64,000 bases of DNA from NCBI GenBank assembly GCA_026706485.1, contig JAPOYR010000011.1, positions 124,001 through 188,000 of the forward strand. Reading direction: 5' to 3'. Positions 12,542 through 48,379 of the stretch are shown here, piece after piece; within the stretch, counting starts at the first letter, position 1, and the number at the start of each line of letters is the position of its first letter. Below the pieces are notes generated by a model. It did not search any database. It was not told the origin of the DNA and saw only the letters and a list, made by a program, of their open reading frames with translations. Source of the stretch: Chloroflexota bacterium (GTDB lineage Bacteria > Chloroflexota > UBA11872). Position numbers and translations under genes: made by a program.

Positions 12542-14713
12542 CTACCCGTCGTAGTAGAACTGCGGGAAGCCGTAGGGCCGCACGAAGTTGATCGCGGCAG
12601 CGAAGTTAATGCCTGTCGGCACGTTACGCAGCGACTGATTGACGATGGTCGGCTGCGGCGGATAGCCGACGGTGCCGATAATGGGGTACTGGTCGTAGAA
12701 ATAGGACCAGAACTTCACGCCGAGATCGTCGTACTCGGCTGAGCCCGGCACTGCCCGGCGCCACTCCTCACGCAGGCGCTTGGCCTCTTTCATCCAGTCC
12801 GGCGGCTCCTCGCCTTCCGCGCCGTCGGTTTGGATCCATTGAGCCCAACTGCCGGCCCAATAGCTCTCATACGTGTCCATGCCGTAGTGCCAGGACGCCC
12901 AACGTGTGAAGTAGGCCGCCGCTTCACTGATGTCCTGGGGCATCATCACTTCGGTAAACGTCTTCGCCCGTTCGCGGAAGAGCGCTTCCTCTTCAAACTG
13001 CCACTCGGCATGGAGACCCACCGCTTGCCAGTCCTTCACGATCAACGTGGCCATGTCTTCCTTGGGGCCCTCTTGGTCGGAGACCGTCAGCAAAATGCTG
13101 AACCGCTCACCGTCGGGCCTCAGGCGCCAGCCATCGCTGTCGCGCTTGTCGAGCCCAATCCCATCGAGCAGGCTATTGGCCTGGTCGGGATCGTACTCGG
13201 TGTGGAGCGTGCCCCACTCCGGCTTGAAGAAGCTGTACGACTCAAGCAGGTAGGGCGTGAACGGCCGCGCCAAGCCAAAGAACAAGGTCTCGTTGATGGC
13301 CTCGCGGTTGATGGCCACTGAAGCCGCGACCCGGAAGTCCTTCTCCCGAAAGATGGCGGCGACCGCCGGATCCTTGTACGTCTGGTTCGGGAACAGGGAC
13401 ATGGCCGACGTTCGCAAGCTGGAAGCAACCAACGTGCGGTATCCGCCGCGGTCCTCCTCCGCCCGATACAGCTCCATGTTCTTGAGGTCGAGCACGAACT
13501 GTGCAAAGTCAAGCTCACCAGCCGTGACCTTGATCTGGTAGACCTCCTTGTCCTTGATCCAGAAGTGGTTGACGTAGTCGATGTACGGCAACTGGTTTCC
13601 GGCCGTATCGACCGCGTGGTAGTAGGGGTTTCGCGCGAACTGCGTGACGTCGGGCGAGGCGCCGACGTTGACCCAGGGTCCAAGCGCAGGCCGGAAGGCC
13701 GCATCCTCACGCGACAGCGACGTGCTGGGCCCGTAGTAGAACTTGGACTTGAAGTGATCGGCCCAGGTTTCAAATCCGGCTTTCTCGGCGAGCCGCTGCG
13801 CGTCCGAGTTGTACTTCTCGTGGAAACGCTCGAGGTAGTGCCGCGGTGAGAACACCCATGGATCGCCGGAGTACCGTCCCATGCGATCCAGGTACTGGGG
13901 CGCGGGCCGGTCGAACTTGAACTCGACCACCGTGTCTTCGACCTTCACGATCTCGCGGAGTCCGATCCTCTCGGCGCCGTGCTGAAGACTGCCGCTCGGG
14001 TTGGCGAGGTCGTTGCCCCAAAAGTCCTCGTAGGTGAACATGAAATCGTCAGCCGTAAACGGCGCGCCGTCGGACCACTTGTGGCCTTCCCGAATCTCGA
14101 AGGTGAACGTCTGCAAATCACTGGAGACATCGAGGTTCTTGGCGAGGTCGAGAAACAGCTCGGTACCCGTCATGGCGTAAGCCATGAGACTGGCGTCGCC
14201 CCCGTAGCCGATCTCAATCGATCGGCGAATGCCGCCCAGCCGCAGCGTGCCGCCGTAGTTCCCGACTTGCTCGACCGGCTCGATAACCCACGGGTCCTTC
14301 GGCAGACGGCTATCGACTGGAGGCAGCGAGCCCGCCTGGACCCTGGCTGCCAGCATCGGCGCCTCCGAGAAGCGGGACGGCGTCGCCACTTCCTTGATGA
14401 CGACGCGCTCGACGGGAATTTCCTTGACGACTTCCTTCGTGACAATCGTCTCGACCTGAACCTCCTTGACGACCTCGACCGGAACTTCCTTGATGATTTC
14501 CTTGGTCACCACCGTCTCGATCGGGACTTCCTTGATGACCTCTTGCCTCACCACGGTCTCGACCGGAACTTCCTTGATGACCTCTTTGACTTCGGTGACC
14601 GTCACCGTCACGGTCTTTTCAGTGACCTCGGCCTCGCCGCATGCCGCCAACACGGACATGGCCGCTGTCCCGGCGGTCATGGTCAGAAATCTTCGACGAC
14701 TGAGCTTTGGCAT
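12542..14713 (-). CDS. ABC transporter substrate-binding lipoprotein, family 5 (peptide/oligosaccharide type), with repetitive KEV.VE spacer
   Basis: 723 residues. The N-terminus combines a twin-arginine motif (SRRRFL, residues 5-10) with a lipobox (LAAC, Cys25), so it is probably Tat-exported and lipid-anchored. Residues about 28-115 are a low-complexity spacer built from units such as KEVPVETVVTKE, rich in V, E, K and T. The SBP_bac_5 domain then follows (about 130-720) with 'FTFEIREGHKWSDGAPFTADDFMFTYED' (about 205-232) and 'VAASVAINREAIN' (about 465-477). It would deliver solutes to the DppB/C permeases encoded downstream. GGAGGA lies about 10 bases before the ATG. The length is greater than the typical 500-600 residues, mainly because of the spacer. 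Confidence 0.93.
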   Translation of the reverse strand: MPKLSRRRFLTMTAGTAAMSVLAACGEAEVTEKTVTVTVTEVKEVIKEVPVETVVRQEVIKEVPIETVVTKEIIKEVPVEVVKEVQVETIVTKEVVKEIPVERVVIKEVATPSRFSEAPMLAARVQAGSLPPVDSRLPKDPWVIEPVEQVGNYGGTLRLGGIRRSIEIGYGGDASLMAYAMTGTELFLDLAKNLDVSSDLQTFTFEIREGHKWSDGAPFTADDFMFTYEDFWGNDLANPSGSLQHGAERIGLREIVKVEDTVVEFKFDRPAPQYLDRMGRYSGDPWVFSPRHYLERFHEKYNSDAQRLAEKAGFETWADHFKSKFYYGPSTSLSREDAAFRPALGPWVNVGASPDVTQFARNPYYHAVDTAGNQLPYIDYVNHFWIKDKEVYQIKVTAGELDFAQFVLDLKNMELYRAEEDRGGYRTLVASSLRTSAMSLFPNQTYKDPAVAAIFREKDFRVAASVAINREAINETLFFGLARPFTPYLLESYSFFKPEWGTLHTEYDPDQANSLLDGIGLDKRDSDGWRLRPDGERFSILLTVSDQEGPKEDMATLIVKDWQAVGLHAEWQFEEEALFRERAKTFTEVMMPQDISEAAAYFTRWASWHYGMDTYESYWAGSWAQWIQTDGAEGEEPPDWMKEAKRLREEWRRAVPGSAEYDDLGVKFWSYFYDQYPIIGTVGYPPQPTIVNQSLRNVPTGINFAAAINFVRPYGFPQFYYDG

Positions 14714-18867: not shown

Positions 18868-20235
18868 GTGAAAGACCCCCGCACGCACAACGTAGCCAGT
18901 TCGTACGCGCTGTGGGAGCGCGCCAACCAGATCATTCCGGGCGGCTCGCAGCTCATCAGCCGCCGGCCCTATGCCTTTTCCAATGGATTCGCCCCGGTAT
19001 ACGCCGAGCGCGGCAAGGGCTCGCGCATCTGGGACGACCAGGGCGTGGAATACATCGACTTCGGGATGTCGGTGACCTCCGCCATCCTCGGTTACGCCGA
19101 CGACGTCGTGGACGAGGCCGTGATCGAGCAGATCGGCAAAGGCGCGACCTACTCGCTCAACAGCGAGCGCGAGATCGAGCTGGCCGAGCTGCTGATCGAC
19201 CGCATTCCGTGCGCCGAGATGGCGCGGTTTTCCAAGGGCGGCGGGGAGTCGTGCGCCATCGCGGTGCGCATCGCCCGCGGGGCCACGGGCCGGGACGTGG
19301 TGCTGTTCAGCGGCTACCACGGCTGGCACGACTGGTACCTGGCCGCCGGCCACCTGAAAGAGGGCGCGTTCGATCCGTTCGCCCTGCCGAACATCCGCGC
19401 CACCGGAGTGCCGAAGGCGCTCGAAGGCACCTCGATTCCGTTCCCCTGGGGCGAGCTCGAGCCGCTGGAGCGGCTGCTGGAGCAGCATCGCGGCCAGGTG
19501 GCCTGCATCATGATGGAGCCGATCCTGCTCGCCACTCGCCCGCCCGAGGGCTATCTGGAGGGCGTCCGCGAGCTGGCGACGCGCGAAAACGTGGTGCTGA
19601 TCTTCGACGAGGTCACCACAAACTTCCGCTACGGCGCCAACGGCATCCAGGACTTCGTGGGCGTGGTCCCGGACCTGGCGTGCTTTGCCAAGGCCATCTC
19701 GAACGGCTACGCCATGGGCGCGGTGGTCGGCAAGCGCTGGGTGATGGAGCCGGCGGCGGACATGTTCGTCAGCAGCACCTATTGGAGCGATCTGGTGGGC
19801 ATCACGGCGGCGATCACCACGCTCACCGAGATCGAGCGTCGGGACGTGCCGGGGCAACTGGCCGACTTCGGCGAGCGCTTGCAGTCGGGCATGCAGGAAG
19901 TGCTGGATGAGGTCGATCTGCCGGTGACGATCTCGGGCATGCCAGCGACTCCGGGCATCACCTTCACCGATCCGTTCGACGCCGACGAATCCAAGAAGCT
20001 GAACGCGCTGGTGGCGCAGGAAGCCGCCAAGCGGGGCATCTTGTTCAACACGCACCCGCGCCACAGCACAGCGCACGACGACCGCGACCTCGGCATGACG
20101 CTGGAGGTATTCCGCAAGGCCCTGCTGGTGACCAAGGAAGCGATCGGTCGGAACGCCGTCGACGACGTGCTGGAGGCCAGCCTGGCGCCGGCGATCATTC
20201 CGCGACCGACCTTGAAGCCAAGCAATTCGGGATGA
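18868..20235 (+). CDS. Class III aminotransferase (glutamate-1-semialdehyde aminomutase-like)
   Basis: 455 residues from GTG 18868, selected because AAAGGCGG lies about 6 bases upstream and the family similarity starts at once (SYALWERANQIIPGGSQL). Fold-type I PLP enzyme: 'SGYHGWHDWYLA' (about 150-161), 'LIFDEVTTNFRYG' (about 246-258, Asp binding the PLP ring nitrogen) and 'CFAKAISNGYAMGAVVG' (Lys Schiff base, about residue 275). The layout is that of HemL-like aminomutases, but many relatives are amino-acid or amino-sugar aminotransferases, so HemL activity should not be assumed. Its stop overlaps the first of five GNAT genes (ATGA), making it the head of that operon. Confidence 0.88.
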   Translation: MKDPRTHNVASSYALWERANQIIPGGSQLISRRPYAFSNGFAPVYAERGKGSRIWDDQGVEYIDFGMSVTSAILGYADDVVDEAVIEQIGKGATYSLNSEREIELAELLIDRIPCAEMARFSKGGGESCAIAVRIARGATGRDVVLFSGYHGWHDWYLAAGHLKEGAFDPFALPNIRATGVPKALEGTSIPFPWGELEPLERLLEQHRGQVACIMMEPILLATRPPEGYLEGVRELATRENVVLIFDEVTTNFRYGANGIQDFVGVVPDLACFAKAISNGYAMGAVVGKRWVMEPAADMFVSSTYWSDLVGITAAITTLTEIERRDVPGQLADFGERLQSGMQEVLDEVDLPVTISGMPATPGITFTDPFDADESKKLNALVAQEAAKRGILFNTHPRHSTAHDDRDLGMTLEVFRKALLVTKEAIGRNAVDDVLEASLAPAIIPRPTLKPSNSG

Positions 20236-20804
20236 CTTCCGAGGAGTGGCCGCCGCTGCCGGAGTCCATCCAAACGCCGCGGCTGCTCCTGCGGCGGTAC
20301 AGACTCAGCGACGCAGAGGATGCCTACGCCTACGCGCGCGACCCGGAGTGGGGACGCTTCCTCCCCCCTGTCCCACAGCCCTATGAGCGGCATCACGCCG
20401 ACGAATTCGTCGCCGGGCAGGTGTTAGCGAATTGGAGCAAGGAGCCCGCCTGGGCGATTGAGCATGACGACCGGGTCGTCGGCGGCGTAAGCCTGCGGTT
20501 GTCTCCCCGAAATGGGCTGGCGGAGCTCGGCTATTCGATGGCCCGGTGGCTTTGGGGCCGCGGACTCACAACCGAAGCCGTGTCGGCAGTCATCGACGCA
20601 GCGTTCCGATGCCTCCCGCTTCGCAAGATCGCCGCCCGCGCGGCAGCCGCGAATCTCGGTTCGATTCGTGTCATGGAGAAGGTCGGGATGCAGTACGAGG
20701 GTCATCTGCGGCAGCACTGGGTTGTCCACGGCCAGACGTACGACTCCGTGCACTACGGCCTTTTGCGTGAGGAGTGGGAGCAGCAAGCGGACGCCGCGGA
20801 ATGA
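20232..20804 (+). CDS. GNAT N-acetyltransferase, RimJ/RimL type, array member 1
   Basis: 190 residues. Acetyltransf_3 layout: 'ESIQTPRLLLRRYRLSDAEDAYAYARDPEWGRFLPP' at the N-terminus (about 11-46) and the acetyl-CoA pyrophosphate loop 'RWLWGRGLTTEAVSAVIDAAF' (about 105-125, the R/QxxGxG/A motif). 'NLGSIRVMEKVGMQYEG' (about 142-158) is the usual 'NxxSxxVxEKxGF' element. RimJ/RimL relatives acetylate protein N-termini, antibiotics or small amines; the target here is unknown. First of five tandem paralogs, each joined by an ATGA overlap, and itself overlapped by the aminotransferase stop. Visually it is closest to member 4. Confidence 0.9.
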   Translation: MTSEEWPPLPESIQTPRLLLRRYRLSDAEDAYAYARDPEWGRFLPPVPQPYERHHADEFVAGQVLANWSKEPAWAIEHDDRVVGGVSLRLSPRNGLAELGYSMARWLWGRGLTTEAVSAVIDAAFRCLPLRKIAARAAAANLGSIRVMEKVGMQYEGHLRQHWVVHGQTYDSVHYGLLREEWEQQADAAE

Positions 20805-21391
20805 CCACCGGCGACTGGCCGCTGCTGCGGGAATCGATCCAGACGCCGCGGCTGCTCTTGCGACCGTTCAGGTTCGACGACGCGGATGACATATACGCCT
20901 ATGCCAGCGACCCGGAATGGGGACGCTTTCTTGCCCACGAGCAGCCCTACGAACGCCGTCATGCGGAGGCCTTCTTGGCCGAGCGCGTGTTGGCGAAATG
21001 GCGCAAGAATCCTGCCTGGGCGATGGAGCAGGACGGTCGAGTGGTCGGCGGGTTGAGCTTGTGGCTGGCTCGCCGGAATCGACGGGCGGAGATTGGCTAC
21101 GAGTTGGCCCGGCGGCTGTGGGGCCGCGGTCTCGCAACCGAGGCTGCGGCGGCGGTCATCGACGAGGCGTTTCGCCTGCTTCCGATCCGCAAGGTGACCG
21201 CAACCGCGAGCGCAGCCAACGTCCGATCAACGCGGCTACTTGAAAGACTCGGCATGCAGCGCGAAGCCCTGCTTCGACAGCACTGGGTACATCGCGGCGA
21301 ATCCCTGGATGAGGTTCGCTACGGGCTACTCCGTGAAGAGTGGCAGCCGCTAGCCGGGCCCGCTTCCACCGAGCGACGCGCTTCACGATGA
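20801..21391 (+). CDS. GNAT N-acetyltransferase, RimJ/RimL type, array member 2
   Basis: 196 residues from the ATG embedded in the preceding stop (ATGA); the reading frame extends 27 bases further upstream but the array pattern and N-terminal alignment (MTTGDWPLLRESIQTPRLLLR) fix the start. It has the acetyl-CoA loop 'RRLWGRGLATEAAAAVIDEAF' and 'NVRSTRLLERLGMQREA' near the C-terminus. It diverges from the others in the 40-45 region, where 'WGRFLAHEQPYERRHAEAFLAE' lacks the PPVP of members 1 and 4, and at the acceptor-side strands, so it may differ in substrate. Same operon as the aminotransferase. Confidence 0.9.
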   Translation: MTTGDWPLLRESIQTPRLLLRPFRFDDADDIYAYASDPEWGRFLAHEQPYERRHAEAFLAERVLAKWRKNPAWAMEQDGRVVGGLSLWLARRNRRAEIGYELARRLWGRGLATEAAAAVIDEAFRLLPIRKVTATASAANVRSTRLLERLGMQREALLRQHWVHRGESLDEVRYGLLREEWQPLAGPASTERRASR

Positions 21392-21981
21392 CCACCGGCG
21401 ACTGGCCGCTGCTGCGGGAGTCGATCCAGACGCCGCGGCTGCTCCTGCGGCGGTTCAGGCTCGCCGACGCCGAGGACGTGTATGCCTATGCGCGGGACTC
21501 GGAATGGCGGCGCTTTCTCTTCACGGTTCCGCAGCCCTACGAGCGGCGGCACGCCGACGAATTCGTGGCGGCAAACGTACTCACCGACTGGCGCACCAAG
21601 CCGCAGTGGGCGATCGAGCGCGAGGGCCGGGCCGTCGGAACGGTCGCGCTGTGGATCCAGCGCCGGCATGAGCGGGCGGAATTCGGCTACACCCTGGCGC
21701 GTTGGCTGTGGGGGCGCGGCCTGATGACCGAAGCCGTGTCGGCGCTCATCGACGAGGCGTTCGCCACGCTCCCGCTGCGCAAGGTCGCCGCCCGTGCGCT
21801 TGCCCCCAACATTGGATCGATTCGAGTGATGGAGAAAGCCGGTATGCAATTCGAGGCGGTGCTTCGCCGGCATTTCTCGCACCGCGACGAGGTATTTGAC
21901 CTGGTGCACTACGGGCTCTTGCGCAAGGAGTGGGAGCAGCGGACGGGCACCGCTCGAAGCAAGCCCGGGTCTCAGCAATGA
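21388..21981 (+). CDS. GNAT N-acetyltransferase, RimJ/RimL type, array member 3
   Basis: 197 residues, started at the ATG overlapping the previous stop; an earlier in-frame start at 21340 is disfavoured by the array pattern. N-terminus MTTGDWPLLRESIQTPRLLLRRFRLADAEDVYAYARD is nearly the same as member 2, suggesting recent duplication or conversion of that part. The middle (EREGRAVGTVALWIQRRHERAEFGY) and the C-terminus (RHFSHRDEVFDLVHYGLLRKEWE) differ. Acetyl-CoA loop 'RWLWGRGLMTEAVSALIDEAF'. Same family and unknown target as its neighbours. Confidence 0.9.
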   Translation: MTTGDWPLLRESIQTPRLLLRRFRLADAEDVYAYARDSEWRRFLFTVPQPYERRHADEFVAANVLTDWRTKPQWAIEREGRAVGTVALWIQRRHERAEFGYTLARWLWGRGLMTEAVSALIDEAFATLPLRKVAARALAPNIGSIRVMEKAGMQFEAVLRRHFSHRDEVFDLVHYGLLRKEWEQRTGTARSKPGSQQ

Positions 21982-22550
21982 CCACCGACGACTGGCCACC
22001 GCCGTCGGAGTCGATCGAAACGCCGCGGCTACACCTGCGACGGTATCGGCTCACCGACGCGGAGGATGTCTTCGCCTACGCGCGCGACCCGGAGTGGGGG
22101 CGCTTCATGCCCCCAGTCCCGCGGCCCTACGAGCGGCGCCATGCGAGTGTCTTTGTGGCCGGCCAGGTGTTGGCGAATTGGCGGCAAGAGCCTGCCTGGG
22201 CGATCGAGCACCAAGGTCGGGTGGTTGGCCGGGTGAGGCTGCGTCTGGCGCCGCGGCATGGGCGGGCGGATCTCGGCTATTCGATCGCCCGGTGGCTCTG
22301 GGGACGCGGCCTCACCACCGAAGCCGTATCGGCAGTCATCGACGAGGCATTCCGATGCCTGCCGCTGCGCAAGATCGCTGCGGGCGCAATTGCCGAAAAC
22401 GTCGGGTCGATTCGAGTCATGCAGAAGGTCAACATGCAGCGCGAAGGAGTGATGCGTCGGCACTGGGTGTGCCACGGCCAGACTTGCGACTCGGTGCACT
22501 ACAGCCTGCTGCGCGAAGAGTGGGAGCAGCGAGCGGGCGCCGCCGAATGA
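21978..22550 (+). CDS. GNAT N-acetyltransferase, RimJ/RimL type, array member 4
   Basis: 190 residues, ATGA-coupled to member 3. Reads almost as a copy of member 1: same length, 'ARDPEWGRF.PPVP.PYER' and 'FVAGQVLANW..EPAWAIEH', acetyl-CoA loop 'RWLWGRGLTTEAVSAVIDEAF', and 'HGQT.DSVHY.LLREEWEQ' at the end. A few positions usually conserved in the array are changed (TPRLHLRR for TPRLLLRR; QKVNMQREG for EKVGMQYEG), which may reflect relaxed selection or altered specificity. Confidence 0.9.
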   Translation: MTTDDWPPPSESIETPRLHLRRYRLTDAEDVFAYARDPEWGRFMPPVPRPYERRHASVFVAGQVLANWRQEPAWAIEHQGRVVGRVRLRLAPRHGRADLGYSIARWLWGRGLTTEAVSAVIDEAFRCLPLRKIAAGAIAENVGSIRVMQKVNMQREGVMRRHWVCHGQTCDSVHYSLLREEWEQRAGAAE

Positions 22551-23143
22551 CCACTGACGACTGGCCGCCGCTTTCGGAGTCGATCCAAACGCCGCGGCTG
22601 CTCCTGCGGCGGTATCGACTCAGCGACGCGGAGGACGTCTTCGCCTATGCCCACGACCCGGTGTGGGCGCGCTTTCTCCCCGGGGTCCCCGAGCCCTACG
22701 AGCGGCACCATGCCGACGAGTTTGTCGCGTCGCACGTCCTGAAGGACTGGCGCACCGAGTCTCATTGGGCGCTCGAGCACGCGGGCCGCGTGGTCGGACA
22801 CGTGGGGCTAACACCGGCGCCTCGGCATGGACGGGTGGAGCTGGGCTACGAACTGGCCCGGTGGTTGTGGGGCCGCGGTCTCATGACCGAAGCCGCGTCG
22901 GCGGTGATCGACGAGGCGTTCCGAAAGCTCCCACTCCGCAAGATCCTCGCCCACGCGATTGCCGCCAACGTCGGCTCGACGCGGGTGATGGAGAAGGTCG
23001 GCATGCGGCACGAGGTAACGCTGCGCCAGCACTGGGTCTTCCGCGGTCAGGCCTATGACGCGGTGAACTACGGCCTCATACGCGAAGAGTGGGAACGGAT
23101 CGCGGGGAATCCGAGCGGCGGGGAAAACGCACAACGTCCGTAG
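22547..23143 (+). CDS. GNAT N-acetyltransferase, RimJ/RimL type, array member 5
   Basis: 198 residues from the ATG at 22547 that overlaps the previous stop; the open frame continues far upstream through the antisense-free region but that part is only a shadow of member 4. Motifs: 'ESIQTPRLLLRRYRLSDAEDVFAYAHDPVWARFLPG', acetyl-CoA loop 'RWLWGRGLMTEAASAVIDEAF' and 'NVGSTRVMEKVGMRHEV'. Last gene of the operon; the tail 'GNPSGGENAQRP' is unlike the others and runs into a repeat-rich spacer. Confidence 0.9.
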   Translation: MTTDDWPPLSESIQTPRLLLRRYRLSDAEDVFAYAHDPVWARFLPGVPEPYERHHADEFVASHVLKDWRTESHWALEHAGRVVGHVGLTPAPRHGRVELGYELARWLWGRGLMTEAASAVIDEAFRKLPLRKILAHAIAANVGSTRVMEKVGMRHEVTLRQHWVFRGQAYDAVNYGLIREEWERIAGNPSGGENAQRP

Positions 23144-23209
23144 ATTCCTCACGGCGTTTGGAAGAACGCAGCTGGCGCCTCACCGTTGTCATTTCGAGCG
23201 CACTACTCC

Positions 23210-23289
23210 GTCATTCCGAGCGCAGCGAGGAATCCAAGGCGCGAAAAAAGCGCAACGCCCTTAGATTCCTCACATTCGTTCGGAATGAT
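23210..23289. repeat. Dispersed inverted-repeat element (TCATTCCGAGCG type)
   Basis: TCATTCCGAGCGCAGCGAGG plus AATC on the left (23211-23234) is answered by the imperfect inverse copy at 23264-23289 (GATTCCTCACATTCG then TTCGGAATGAT). Degenerate pieces of the same type precede it (TAGATTCCTCAC at 23142-23153; GTCATTTCGAGCG at 23188-23200). Such GGAATC/GATTCC palindromic elements are common dispersed repeats in bacterial genomes. It lies between two convergent operons and could also end transcription. Confidence 0.65.
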
Positions 23290-23309
23290 CAGGGCGAATG
23301 GCTATTCGA

Positions 23310-43883: not shown

Positions 43884-45301
43884 ATCCGGTTGCCACGCGG
43901 CCGACGCCGCTGGCAACGGCTAAACCGATCATGCAGCCATCCGTCCTCACCCTGAATCGACTGACGGTTGGATTCGGTCGACGCCACGTGGTTCGCGACG
44001 TCTCGCTGTCCCTGCGCCCCGGCGAGCGAGTGGCCTTGCTGGGAGCCAATGGCGCCGGCAAGACGACCCTGCTGCGCACGCTGGCGACCCTGCAGCCGCC
44101 GTTGGGCGGGCAGGCGACCGCCGGCGGCGCGGATGTCGTGCAGCGCAAGCGCGAGGCGCGCCGTCACGTCGGCTTTGTCGGGCACACGCCGCACCTGATC
44201 AGTCACCTCACGGCCCGCGAGAACCTCGCGTTTCTGGCCTCGCTCTACGGGCTGTCAAACGCCGGCGCGCGGGTCTCCGAATCCCTGAGCGTGGTGGGGC
44301 TCGATGAGATCGCCAACCGACGCGCCCGCGAGCTTTCACGCGGTCAGCTCCAGCGGCTGGCCCTGGCGGCGGCAGGGCTGCATCACCCGGCGGTGCTGTT
44401 GCTGGACGAGCCCGACGCCAGCCTCGACCGCGACGCCGTCCGCGAGCTGCCCGCCATGCTGGACGCGCTGTGCCCAGGCTCGGCCGTGCTGCTGAGCACG
44501 CATGATCCCGATGTGGCCGCACGGGCGGCCGGGCGAAGCATTCTTGTGGACCAGGGCCGGGTCATCGAACCGGATTCGCCCGGAACGCCAGCGCCGGAGC
44601 TACCGCTTCCGACCGGAGCAACGGACGTGTCGTTCATCACCACGGCGTGGACGCTCCTCCGCAAGGACGCGCTGGTGGAGTGGCGCGCACGTGAACAGGC
44701 GCCGGCGCTGCTGGCCTTCACGCTGCTCATCACCGTGCTGTTCGACATGGCGTTCGTCATCCTGGCGCAGGCCGACGCGCCGGCGGTGGCCGCTGGCGTG
44801 GCCTGGTCCACGCTCTTGTTGGTGGCCAGCCTGTCGGGCGTCCGGCTCTTTGGATCCGAGCGGGACGCCAACACGCTCACCTGCTTGCGCCTGGCGCCCA
44901 TCGATCAGAGCGCCGTGTTCGTGGCCAAGTACCTCCTGCTAGCCGCGCACGTGCTGGCCGTTGGACTGGTGCAGTTGGCGCTGCTGAGCGTCCTGCTCGA
45001 TTTGCAGCTCTTCCAGGGCGGGATGCTGGCCACCTTGGTTCTCGTGACCATCGCCTTGAGCGCGGTAGCGGCCATGCAGAGCGCCCTGGCGTTGGAGAGC
45101 CGCGCGCGGGAGGTCCTGATGCCGCTACTGGCGGTGCCGCTGGCGATACCCGTGATGCTGGCCGGTGTCGGCGCGACCCTCGAAACGCTGCAGGGCGCGC
45201 CGGCGGGGGGCGCCGCGCCGTGGCTGGGTTTGCTGGCGGTGGTGGCCGCCGTATTCTTAGCCTTGAGCGTCCTGCTCTACCCGCTCGCGGTCGACGGCTA
45301 G
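43880..45301 (+). CDS. ccmAB: CcmA-CcmB fusion, heme exporter ATPase plus membrane subunit
   Basis: 473 residues with a GTG start overlapping the ccmE stop. N-terminal ABC ATPase: Walker A GANGAGKT (55-62), signature LSRGQ (152-156), Walker B AVLLLDEP (171-178) and H-loop His208. From about 255 onward six helices form a CcmB-like domain beginning 'TTAWTLLRKDALVEWRAREQ' (CcmB openings are usually '...RDL..E.R.....'). The two proteins are normally separate genes. The fused unit would form the ATP-driven part that releases holo-CcmE from CcmC. Confidence 0.88.
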   Translation: MNPVATRPTPLATAKPIMQPSVLTLNRLTVGFGRRHVVRDVSLSLRPGERVALLGANGAGKTTLLRTLATLQPPLGGQATAGGADVVQRKREARRHVGFVGHTPHLISHLTARENLAFLASLYGLSNAGARVSESLSVVGLDEIANRRARELSRGQLQRLALAAAGLHHPAVLLLDEPDASLDRDAVRELPAMLDALCPGSAVLLSTHDPDVAARAAGRSILVDQGRVIEPDSPGTPAPELPLPTGATDVSFITTAWTLLRKDALVEWRAREQAPALLAFTLLITVLFDMAFVILAQADAPAVAAGVAWSTLLLVASLSGVRLFGSERDANTLTCLRLAPIDQSAVFVAKYLLLAAHVLAVGLVQLALLSVLLDLQLFQGGMLATLVLVTIALSAVAAMQSALALESRAREVLMPLLAVPLAIPVMLAGVGATLETLQGAPAGGAAPWLGLLAVVAAVFLALSVLLYPLAVDG

Positions 45302-45313
45302 GAGATCCTTCGC

Positions 45314-46090
45314 ATGAGCCTTGCCAGCTTCGTGCTGCGCCGCCGGGCCAGCAGGCAACCGCCGCTCTTCGGGTGGCGGGGCCTTGTGGTCTATGCGTCG
45401 CTGCTGGTCCTGATGTCGGCGGCGCTCTACATGATCTTCATCTACGCGCCGGCGGAACGCGTCCAGGGTGACGCCCACCGCCTGCTCTACGGCCACGTCG
45501 CGGTGGCCTGGCTTGCCTTTCTCGCGTTCGGCATCGTCGCCGTCGCCAGCGTGCTGTACCTGTGGCGGCGAAATGCGCGCTGGGACAGCCTGGCGGTGGC
45601 GTCCGCCGAGGTTGGCGTGCTGTTCACCACGCTGACGCTGGCCTCCGGTTCCATCTGGGGTCGCCACGTGTGGGGCGTCTGGTGGACCTGGGACCCGCGG
45701 CTGACCACCACGCTGGTGCTGTGGTTCATCTACGTGGCTTACCTGGCGCTCCGGATGTACATCGACAACGTCGACACCCGCCGGCGCGTCGCGGCCATAT
45801 TCGGCATCGTGGGCGTCGTTGACGTGCCCATCGTGTGGTACTCGGTGGAATGGTGGCGCAGCCTGCACCCGGTGCAGTCGGTCACGCGCGCGGGACTGAC
45901 CCCGGAGATGGTGCTCACGATGCTGGTCACCGTGGTCGCGTTTACCGTCTTTTGCTTCGTGCTTATCCGCCAGCGCTATCTCTTAGAGCGTGCCAGCGAC
46001 GAGGGAGAGGATCTAAGGGATATCGTCCGCAATCGGCTTGAGGAATTGCGGATGACAGGCGCCAAGTCGACGCCGGAGGCTGGGAAATGA
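45314..46090 (+). CDS. ccmC: Heme exporter/handling protein CcmC
   Basis: 258 residues, AGGAG about 9 bases upstream. Six helices and the WWD heme-binding motif 'GVWWTWDPRLTT' at about 121-132. His61 in 'YGHVAVAWLAF' and a second His in 'WWRSLHPVQS' (about residue 187) are the conserved axial ligands. CcmC loads heme onto CcmE. Its stop overlaps the small ccmD-like gene (ATGA). Confidence 0.93.
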   Translation: MSLASFVLRRRASRQPPLFGWRGLVVYASLLVLMSAALYMIFIYAPAERVQGDAHRLLYGHVAVAWLAFLAFGIVAVASVLYLWRRNARWDSLAVASAEVGVLFTTLTLASGSIWGRHVWGVWWTWDPRLTTTLVLWFIYVAYLALRMYIDNVDTRRRVAAIFGIVGVVDVPIVWYSVEWWRSLHPVQSVTRAGLTPEMVLTMLVTVVAFTVFCFVLIRQRYLLERASDEGEDLRDIVRNRLEELRMTGAKSTPEAGK

Positions 46091-46248
46091 CGCAAGAGCT
46101 CGTGTATCTGCTCATCGGATACGGGGTTATCTGGGTGCTGCTGTTCGGCTACCTGGTGTTCGTCACGGGGCGGATCCGCAGCGTGCAGGACGCGGTCCGC
46201 GACATGCGGCAGGAGCTCGACGCTCAACGTCACAAGACCTCGGAGTAG
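46087..46248 (+). CDS. CcmD-like small membrane protein
   Basis: 53 residues, MTQELVYLLIGYGVIWVLLF then GYLVFVTGRIRSVQDAVRDM. One membrane helix (about 5-27) followed by a charged coiled-coil-like tail ending RQELDAQRHKTSE. Its ATG overlaps the ccmC stop. Small CcmD proteins have the same layout and gene position (after ccmC, before ccmF) and help release holo-CcmE from the CcmABC complex; sequence similarity is too short to prove the identity. Confidence 0.75.
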   Translation: MTQELVYLLIGYGVIWVLLFGYLVFVTGRIRSVQDAVRDMRQELDAQRHKTSE

Positions 46249-46381
46249 CCTCGACATCACGCGTCCTCCACGCGGCGGCGCCGGAAGCGCGCTCCGGCAT
46301 TGGAATGGGCATGTCAGTGCATAGCTCCGGTCGGGCATCCGCATTCGCCGTCACCTCTTCGAATTGCCGGGAGCTGAAACT

Positions 46382-48379
46382 GTGATCGACCTAGTGGTGG
46401 TCGGCCGCCTGGCGCTCGGGCTGGCGTTCGGCGTGGCGGTGCTGCAACTCACGATGAGCGGACTCGCCGTCTGGCGTCGCAGCCCGGACTTCACGGACGC
46501 CGCGCGCAACGCCGCCGTCATCCTGGCCGCCGTCGTGACCATTGCCGTCTCCACGCTCGCCGCCGGATTTCTCAGCCAGGACTTCTCGATTGCCTTCGTC
46601 GCCGACACGTCCAGCCGCTCCATGCCGCTCGGCCTCACAATTTCCGCCCTGTGGGGCGGCCAGGAGGGCTCGCTGCTCTTCTGGGCCTGGGGGCTCAGTC
46701 TTTTCAGCGCCCTCGCGGCCTGGCGCATGACCAAGCGCGACGACGCGCTCGCGCCCTGGGGCATTGGCACGCTGGCGGCCATCGCGCTCTTCTTCATCGG
46801 TGTGCTCGTATTCGTTTCCAGCCCGTTTCAGCGGCTGGTCGTGGCGCCCGTCGACGGACGCGGGCTCAATCCCTTGCTCTGGGACAGCGGCATGCAGGTG
46901 CATCCGCCCATGCTGCTCACCGGGTACATGTCGTTCACGATTCCCTTCGCGTTCGCAGCGGCCATGCTGGCCGCGGGGCGCCTCTCCCAGGATTGGCTGC
47001 GCGAGATGCGCAATTGGATGCTCGTGGCCTGGGCCATCCAGGGCGCCGGCCTGTTGCTGGGCGCCTGGTGGGCCTATCGCGTGCTGGGTTGGGGCGGCTA
47101 TTGGGGCTGGGATCCGGTCGAGAACGTCGCGCTGCTGCCCTGGCTCGCGGCCACGGCTTACATCCACTCGGCGCTGGCGCAAGAGCGGCGCGGACAGTTG
47201 CGGGCCTGGTCCGTGGGACTGGTGCTTTTGGGATTCGCCCTGGCCGTTTTCGGCACGTTCGTCGTGCGCAGCGGGATTCTCACTTCGGTGCACTCGTTCG
47301 CGCTGTCGGACGTGGGGCCGATCTTTCTCACGTTTGTCGGCATCGTCATGGTGATCGCCGTCCTGGCCTTCCTCTATCGGCTCCCCATGCTGCGGGCCCC
47401 GATGGCCATCGAGTCGCTGGCGTCCAAGGAAGCCGGAGTCCTGCTCAACAATCTGCTGCTCATGGCGGTGCTGGTGGCGGTGCTCTGGGGCACCGTGTTC
47501 CCGATCTTCTCGGAGCTTGTGCAAGGGGTGCGCATCGCGGTTGGGCCGCCGTTCTACGCCCAGGTCACCGTGCCGTTGCTGCTGATCATGCTCGGGCTGT
47601 TGGGCATCGGGCCGCTCCTGGCCTGGCGGCGCACGACGGGGCGCGCCGCGTGGCGGGCCACCCGCTGGCCGATCCTCGTCGCCATCGTGGTCTCTGCCGT
47701 CTTGCTCGCCGTGGGCATGCGCGCCGGGCTGGCCGTGCTGGGGTTTGGCCTTGCAGGTCTCGTGGCCGCCGGCGCCTTGCTCGAGCTGGCGCGAAGCGTC
47801 CGCGCCCGAGCACCGCAGTCAGCCGGCGAGCCGCGCATCGCGCTCAGCCTGGTCGGCAGCCGGCGACGCCTGGGGAGCCACCTGGTGCACTTCAGCGTCG
47901 CGGTCTTTGCCATCGGGATCGTCGGCTCGTCGTCCTTCGGGCAGGAAAGGGCCGTGCGCCTGGCCCAAGGGGAATCGGCGACCGTCGACGGCCACACCGT
48001 CACGTTTCGCGGCCTCCGTCCCCTGTCGCAGCCCGGTCTGACGACCGTTTACGCCGACCTCGACGTGGAGCGCGGCGATCAGCCCCCGGCGCGCCTCGCA
48101 CCCTCGCGCCGGATACACGTCGGGTGGGAGAACCAACCCACGTCCGACGTGGCGATTCGCACCACCTTCCCTGGGCTCGACGACCTCTACGTCCTGCTCG
48201 ACGATTGGGAGCCGGACGGATCGGCGGCGTCGTTCCGCATCCTGGTGAATCCGCTCGTACCGCTGCTATGGGTTGGCGGCGTGCTGTACTTCGTTGGCGT
48301 GCTCGTGATCGCCTGGCCCACCGCCGCACGACAGCCGGCGCAGGCTCCGGCGCCCGCGGGGCATCCGGTGACGCCGTGA
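46382..48379 (+). CDS. ccmF: Heme lyase CcmF
   Basis: 665 residues from GTG 46382, chosen for the GGGAG 8 bases upstream; TTG 46364 would add six residues. CcmF/NrfE family with about 14 helices. The WWD domain 'WAYRVLGWGGYWGWDPVENVALLPWL' (in parts, about 230-255) binds heme from holo-CcmE; conserved His in 'HPPMLLTGY' (about 175) and 'IHSALAQERRG' are the usual ligands. It attaches heme to CxxCH cysteines of apocytochromes with CcmH. Overlaps ccmH by GTGA. Confidence 0.93.
   Translation: MIDLVVVGRLALGLAFGVAVLQLTMSGLAVWRRSPDFTDAARNAAVILAAVVTIAVSTLAAGFLSQDFSIAFVADTSSRSMPLGLTISALWGGQEGSLLFWAWGLSLFSALAAWRMTKRDDALAPWGIGTLAAIALFFIGVLVFVSSPFQRLVVAPVDGRGLNPLLWDSGMQVHPPMLLTGYMSFTIPFAFAAAMLAAGRLSQDWLREMRNWMLVAWAIQGAGLLLGAWWAYRVLGWGGYWGWDPVENVALLPWLAATAYIHSALAQERRGQLRAWSVGLVLLGFALAVFGTFVVRSGILTSVHSFALSDVGPIFLTFVGIVMVIAVLAFLYRLPMLRAPMAIESLASKEAGVLLNNLLLMAVLVAVLWGTVFPIFSELVQGVRIAVGPPFYAQVTVPLLLIMLGLLGIGPLLAWRRTTGRAAWRATRWPILVAIVVSAVLLAVGMRAGLAVLGFGLAGLVAAGALLELARSVRARAPQSAGEPRIALSLVGSRRRLGSHLVHFSVAVFAIGIVGSSSFGQERAVRLAQGESATVDGHTVTFRGLRPLSQPGLTTVYADLDVERGDQPPARLAPSRRIHVGWENQPTSDVAIRTTFPGLDDLYVLLDDWEPDGSAASFRILVNPLVPLLWVGGVLYFVGVLVIAWPTAARQPAQAPAPAGHPVTP

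What the first reader, a model, noticed from the sequence alone, without database searches (positions are those of the whole stretch)
20232..23143. Array of five tandem, ATGA-coupled GNAT acetyltransferases behind one aminotransferase
Five full-length RimJ/RimL-type paralogs (190, 196, 197, 190, 198 aa) follow one another. Each start codon lies in the previous stop, and the first lies in the stop of a class III aminotransferase. All keep the acetyl-CoA loop (RLWGRGL.TEA) and the TPRLLLRR opening, but differ in the acceptor-side strands. Members 1 and 4 look most alike, and the starts of 2 and 3 are nearly the same, so the array seems to have grown by repeated unit duplication with later divergence. 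Keeping five intact enzymes in one transcript is unusual. It suggests either a family of related amine substrates (the aminotransferase may make one) or a hetero-oligomeric acetylating system.
Basis: partly seen in the sequence, partly recalled or inferred. Interest (0 to 1): 0.75.

Follow-up and report, generated by a model that had tools for sequence, protein, structure and literature searches.

The report
Recombining five-gene acetyltransferase array in Chloroflexota
An uncultured Chloroflexota bacterium, from a genus whose sequenced relatives are metagenome genomes (two apparently from sponges), carries five related acetyltransferase genes overlapped end to start behind an aminotransferase; the five are old, functionally constrained lineages that are gained, lost and spliced by recombination at their shared start sequence, a tidy example of tandem gene-family turnover whose substrates are unknown.

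Summary
A class III aminotransferase (18868-20235) is followed by five intact GNAT genes, each start overlapping the previous stop as ATGA. The copies share 59-78% amino-acid identity, so they are not assembly duplicates. The same five-gene order occurs in an independent genome of the same genus, and 4, 3, 3 and at least 2 copies occur in four others. A tree resolves five orthologous lineages (A-E) older than the genus. Each is under purifying selection (dN/dS 0.1-0.6, mostly 0.15-0.35). D and E are kept everywhere; A, B and C are lost differently, and one B copy has an in-frame TGA. The sister genus has one GNAT behind the same aminotransferase. The new mechanistic point is that the first ~50 bases of each gene track array position rather than lineage, and two first-position genes are chimeras (A-type start, B or D body). 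So copies are deleted and spliced by recombination in the conserved start, which keeps full length and ATGA coupling. Function: most likely AcCoA-dependent N-acetyltransferases of the RimJ/RimL-YdaF/SpeG superfamily with diverged acceptor sides; substrates unknown. An obligate five-subunit complex is disfavoured because array composition is not fixed. Ordinary enzyme family, unusually clear array dynamics.

The parts
18868..20235 (+). Class III PLP aminotransferase, glutamate-1-semialdehyde-aminomutase-like (455 aa, GTG start); likely first gene of the operon
   Evidence: Pfam Aminotran_3 E 1.5e-41; best NCBIfam PRK06209 at 278 bits, below its 486 cut-off; 94-97% identical and next to the array in the relatives; dN/dS 0.06-0.10
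20232..20804 (+). GNAT copy 1, lineage A, 190 aa; ATGA overlap with the aminotransferase
   Evidence: orthologs in G001 and G002
20801..21391 (+). GNAT copy 2, lineage B, 196 aa; ATGA overlap
   Evidence: orthologs in G002, G003 and G001 (TGA-interrupted); groups with the single aminotransferase-coupled GNAT of the sister genus
21388..21981 (+). GNAT copy 3, lineage C, 197 aa; ATGA overlap
   Evidence: orthologs in G002 and G004
21978..22550 (+). GNAT copy 4, lineage D, 190 aa; ATGA overlap; kept in all six genomes
   Evidence: AlphaFold2 pLDDT 93.3
22547..23143 (+). GNAT copy 5, lineage E, 198 aa; ATGA overlap; kept in all six genomes
20232..20285 (+). Position-specific 5' segment of the first array gene (about 54 nt, 'EEWPPLPES' type)
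   Evidence: EEW motif in 5/5 first genes of whatever lineage and 0/16 others; nt 1-30 difference 0.053 among first genes vs 0.198 first-to-rest
20801..20860 (+). Start of copy 2, 97% identical to the start of copy 3: homogenised tract
21388..21447 (+). Start of copy 3, partner of the homogenised tract

Best explanation
The locus is an operon of one PLP aminotransferase and a tandem family of RimJ/RimL-YdaF-type GNAT N-acetyltransferases that evolves by birth, death and splicing. Shown: five lineages older than the genus, each under purifying selection; variable copy number and order between species; recombination in the conserved first ~50-60 nt that joins the start of one copy to the body of another, so products stay full length and ATGA-coupled. 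Inferred: each protein binds acetyl-CoA at the invariant WGRGL.TEA loop, uses the invariant Ser144 (aligned with RimL Ser141) as general acid, and acetylates a primary amine. The lineages differ at acceptor-side positions because they serve different, related amines, probably small molecules or peptides met or made by a symbiont. The ancestral state is one GNAT behind the aminotransferase, which may make or consume one of the amines.
For: Intact genes and ATGA overlaps. GNAT fold predicted with pLDDT 93 and PDB matches to RimL, MccE, SpeG and YdaF relatives. Five ortholog groups with strong support, dN/dS 0.12-0.57 within lineages. Lineage-fixed differences at 165, 172, 170, 174, 158 and 46, six of the top ten in acceptor-side segments (p 0.02), while the AcCoA loop differs by only 0.05. 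Variable arrays in the genus. First-position 5' ends shared across lineages A, B and D; codons 1-18 carry no lineage signal (within 0.142 vs between 0.149). Single aminotransferase-GNAT pair in the sister genus.
Against: No substrate evidence. The acceptor-side enrichment fades when the top 20 or 30 positions are taken (p 0.12), so divergence could be mostly drift. RimL's general base Glu160 is Trp/Phe here. The aminotransferase is kept without an intact GNAT in G011 and in more distant families, so the metabolic link may be weak. dN/dS was computed gene-wide with a simple method on partly saturated dS for paralogs.
Confidence: 0.55

Rival explanations
1. Detoxification or self-protection array: the copies acetylate amine-bearing antibiotics or sponge/microbial toxins, as MccE or bleomycin acetyltransferases do, and variable copy number reflects changing chemical exposure.
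For: Structure and profile matches include MccE and bleomycin acetyltransferase; copy repertoire differs between species; the relatives named in the public collection carry the labels RHO3 and COS3, which fit sponge hosts.
Against: No biosynthetic or export genes beside the array; housekeeping neighbours (deformylase, MoaE/MogA-like, DsbD/thioredoxin) in all relatives; the MccE/RimL general base Glu is absent; weak scores to every named resistance model, far below cut-off.
Confidence: 0.2
2. Mainly neutral tandem birth-and-death: recombination-prone repeats keep making and removing copies, one or two (D, E) matter and the others are passengers.
For: A, B and C are lost in different species, one B copy has a TGA, conversion tracts are frequent, fused two- and three-domain GNATs elsewhere show that duplication is common in this lineage.
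Against: A, B and C orthologs still show dN/dS 0.12-0.34 and intact frames over dS 0.2-0.6; order A-B-C-D-E is identical in two species.
Confidence: 0.17
3. Hetero-oligomeric acetylating enzyme: the coupled genes make subunits of one complex, for example D with E.
For: ATGA coupling suits equal synthesis; relatives of this fold (RimL, YdaF, SpeG) form dimers to dodecamers (PMC4964394; established knowledge for SpeG); natural two-domain fusions exist in the genus.
Against: Composition is not fixed: A-B-C-D-E, A-D-(B)-E, B-D-E, D-C-E; the fusion model was too uncertain to show domain packing (pTM 0.66).
Confidence: 0.08

Closest known systems
RimJ/RimL-YdaF-type GNATs (Pfam PF13302 Acetyltransf_3; PDB 3fbu, 1nsl, 2z0z, 1s7l)
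   Same: Same fold, AcCoA loop, invariant Ser aligned with RimL Ser141, conserved EW C-terminal end; best profile matches in the PDB.
   Different: 18-22% identity to E. coli RimL and RimJ; RimL base Glu160 is Trp/Phe; five coupled paralogs instead of one gene.
MccE / bleomycin acetyltransferase (BlmB, TlmB) self-resistance GNATs
   Same: Same GNAT subgroup in structure and profile searches.
   Different: Scores far below the curated cut-offs (about 24-40 vs 625 bits for TlmB/BlmB); no antibiotic cluster at the locus; the Glu base that MccE shares with RimL is Trp/Phe at the RimL-aligned position.
Lineage-specific GNAT expansions, e.g. Deinococcus (PMC1978522)
   Same: A bacterial lineage with an expanded GNAT family.
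   Different: Here five members form one translationally coupled array with traceable orthologs, losses and chimeras; I did not test whether the Deinococcus members are arrayed.
Type V tandem GNAT proteins such as Eis (PMC8556138)
   Same: Tandem duplication of a GNAT unit; fused two- and three-domain relatives exist in this order.
   Different: Window copies are separate full proteins, all with intact AcCoA loops; in Eis the second GNAT domain is reported as inactive.

Membership tests
GNAT superfamily, PF13302 Acetyltransf_3 | Score over the curated Pfam cut-off (25.4 bits) across the domain | tested here: met
   97-110 bits for all five
GNAT superfamily, PF13302 Acetyltransf_3 | Conserved pyrophosphate loop (WG.G..TEA) and GNAT fold | tested here: met
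   WGRGL[TAM]TEA in all five; AF2 pLDDT 93.3 and hundreds of GNAT matches
GNAT superfamily, PF13302 Acetyltransf_3 | Acetyl transfer from acetyl-CoA | not testable with these tools
   needs enzyme assay
RimL / RimJ ribosomal-protein N-acetyltransferase | Score over the NCBIfam equivalog cut-off (184 / 190 bits) | tested here: not met
   at most 29 / 32 bits
RimL / RimJ ribosomal-protein N-acetyltransferase | RimL general acid Ser141 | tested here: met
   invariant Ser144 (residue roles from PMC4964394)
RimL / RimJ ribosomal-protein N-acetyltransferase | RimL general base Glu160 | tested here: not met
   Trp in copies 1, 2, 4, 5 and Phe in copy 3
Antibiotic acetyltransferases BlmB/TlmB, AAC(6') | Score over NCBIfam cut-off (625 / 250 bits) | tested here: not met
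   at most 40 and 21 bits
GNAT toxin-antitoxin pair | Antitoxin gene (RHH/DUF1778-type) adjacent and coupled | tested here: not met
   neighbours are the aminotransferase and, downstream, a DsbD/thioredoxin-like pair on the other strand; the six array proteins show no PADLOC match, though short ORFs under 100 aa were not searched
Glutamate-1-semialdehyde aminomutase (HemL) | Score over TIGR00713 cut-off (527 bits) | tested here: not met
   236 bits: a class III aminotransferase of unassigned substrate

The most novel reading that the evidence does not exclude
The array is a slow diversity-generating cassette: an invariant, position-bound start segment anchored by the overlap with the aminotransferase, behind which recombination swaps acceptor-specificity bodies, so that a species changes its acetylation repertoire while expression and coupling stay fixed.
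Probability: 0.12. Interest if true: 0.6.

Novelty: new member of a known kind. Interest (0 to 1): 0.4.

Why it matters
GNATs are among the largest enzyme families and substrate assignment is their main open problem. A set of five natural, constrained paralogs with orthologs in six genomes, a single-copy outgroup and known specificity-position differences is a compact test bed for how acceptor specificity evolves. The start-anchored chimeras show a simple route by which a translationally coupled array can change copy number without breaking frames or coupling.

Tried and rejected
Assembly duplication: rejected, copies differ by 22-41% at protein level and the same order occurs in an independent genome. 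Recent duplication of copies 2 and 3: rejected, only the first 60 nt agree. Expansion confined to this genus after the split from the sister genus: not the best tree, an AU test rejects one clade of all array genes (p 0.017), but long outgroup branches make this unsure. Anti-phage defence: no PADLOC match. Domain packing of the natural two-domain fusion: AF2 too uncertain (pTM 0.66). First aminotransferase comparison used a wrong reading frame and is replaced. Promoter/terminator scan found nothing above chance. Paper searches gave no report of such a coupled GNAT array; the library is open-access only.

Full report
Observation. A class III aminotransferase ORF (likely GTG start at 18868, stop at 20235) is followed by five GNAT genes of 190, 196, 197, 190 and 198 aa; each start codon overlaps the previous stop as ATGA. 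All five exceed the Pfam Acetyltransf_3 cut-off. Amino-acid identities are 59-78% and pairwise dN/dS 0.18-0.39. The genome, 3.37 Mb in 13 contigs, holds 13 PF13302 domains, five of them here.

Relatives. All six held genomes of the genus have the array next to the aminotransferase or split by a contig end. The window genome and G002 have five, G001 four, G003 and G004 three, and G005 at least two, with the break inside the array. In the public collection the hits are Chloroflexi MAGs, two labelled RHO3 and COS3; I take these as sponge sample labels by inference. Flanking genes are conserved on both sides: bcp, SDR, MoaE, MogA and deformylase-like before; DsbD and thioredoxin-like after.

Five lineages. 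The tree groups the copies by lineage and not by genome: A (copy 1), B (copy 2), C (copy 3), D (copy 4), E (copy 5). D and E occur in every genome. A is seen in three, B in four (one with an in-frame TGA at codon 88, G001) and C in three. Orthologs within lineages have dN/dS 0.12-0.57, mostly 0.15-0.35, against 0.06-0.10 for the aminotransferase. Lineage D has unusually low dS between some species (0.09-0.15, aminotransferase 0.30-0.37), which suggests exchange between species.

Ancestral state. In the sister genus the aminotransferase (83-85% identical) is followed by a single GNAT overlapping it as GTGA, at a different chromosomal place. This holds at nearly all aminotransferase loci; G011 has the aminotransferase without an intact GNAT. 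More distant aminotransferases (46-51%) have no GNAT beside them. The single copy groups with lineage B, and one clade of all array genes is rejected (p 0.017). This would put the duplications before the split of the genera, with the caution that outgroup branches are long. The slot between deformylase and DsbD holds a different ATGA-coupled GNAT pair in the sister genus (L049, L050) or a single one (L055).

Turnover mechanism. Codons 1-18 carry no lineage signal (nt difference within lineages 0.142, between 0.149; 112 of 500 shuffles reach it), whereas segments from codon 25 onward do (0 of 500). The start follows array position instead. The five first genes, of lineages A, A, A, B and D, all begin with the EEW type; none of 16 others does. 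First genes differ by 0.053 over nt 1-30 against 0.198 to the rest. G003 copy 1 and G004 copy 1 are A-type at the start and B or D in the body; the G003 switch lies near nt 50-70. Other tracts join A with D, B with C and C with D. Recombination in the shared start therefore deletes or splices whole units and leaves full-length, coupled genes. Gene order differs in G001 and G004 (D before B or C), which also group together on the aminotransferase tree (92/98).

Function. The AF2 model of copy 4 is confident (pLDDT 93.3). PDB matches are 2z0z, 3fbu, RimL, MccE, SpeG and PA3270; profile matches are led by 3fbu, YdaF (1nsl) and PA3944. Ser144, aligned with the RimL general acid Ser141, is invariant, but RimL's general base Glu160 is Trp or Phe (roles from PMC4964394). 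Lineage-fixed differences are strongest at 165, 172, 46, 89, 63, 170, 158, 87, 136 and 174. Six of the ten lie in acceptor-side segments (p 0.02), but the enrichment is lost with more positions. I conclude that these are working N-acetyltransferases with probably different amine acceptors; this last step is inference.

What it is not. It is not an assembly artefact, not a RimL, RimJ, MccE, BlmB or AAC ortholog by curated cut-offs or catalytic residues, not a known defence system, and probably not an obligate five-part complex.

Noticed in passing
window 23212-23234 and surroundings 23183-23300: Intergenic repeat CATTCCGAGCGCAGCGAGGAATC just downstream of the array: 59 copies with up to 2 mismatches in the genome, 0 for the reversed control. 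REP-like element.
   Followed up: partly
L056 2895-4106, L057 8614-9825, L058 7838-8992; L051 3467-5065; L052 10481-11521: In-frame fusions of two or three GNAT domains of the same subgroup in genus relatives and in another family of the order.
   Followed up: partly
L009 649-2037 (G000 C11): 462-aa protein with an N-terminal GNAT and a C-terminal methyltransferase domain.
   Followed up: no
L045 8802-11207: An 801-aa ORF, with RCC1-like repeats and a sugar-dehydrogenase-like part as judged by eye, lies between the array and DsbD in G002 but not in the other relatives.
   Followed up: no
L049 8379-9523, L050 7552-8690, L055 9011-9589: The same deformylase-DsbD slot holds a different ATGA-coupled GNAT pair or a single GNAT in the sister genus: a recurrent place for GNAT genes.
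   Followed up: partly
lineage D of the array (window 21978-22550 and orthologs): dS between species is 0.09-0.15 for some pairs against 0.30-0.37 for the neighbouring aminotransferase, suggesting exchange between species.
   Followed up: no
window 14388-14586: Imperfect 42- and 66-bp tandem repeats, possibly coding.
   Followed up: no
window 44001-48000: Strong AT skew (-0.243) compared with the rest of the window.
   Followed up: no
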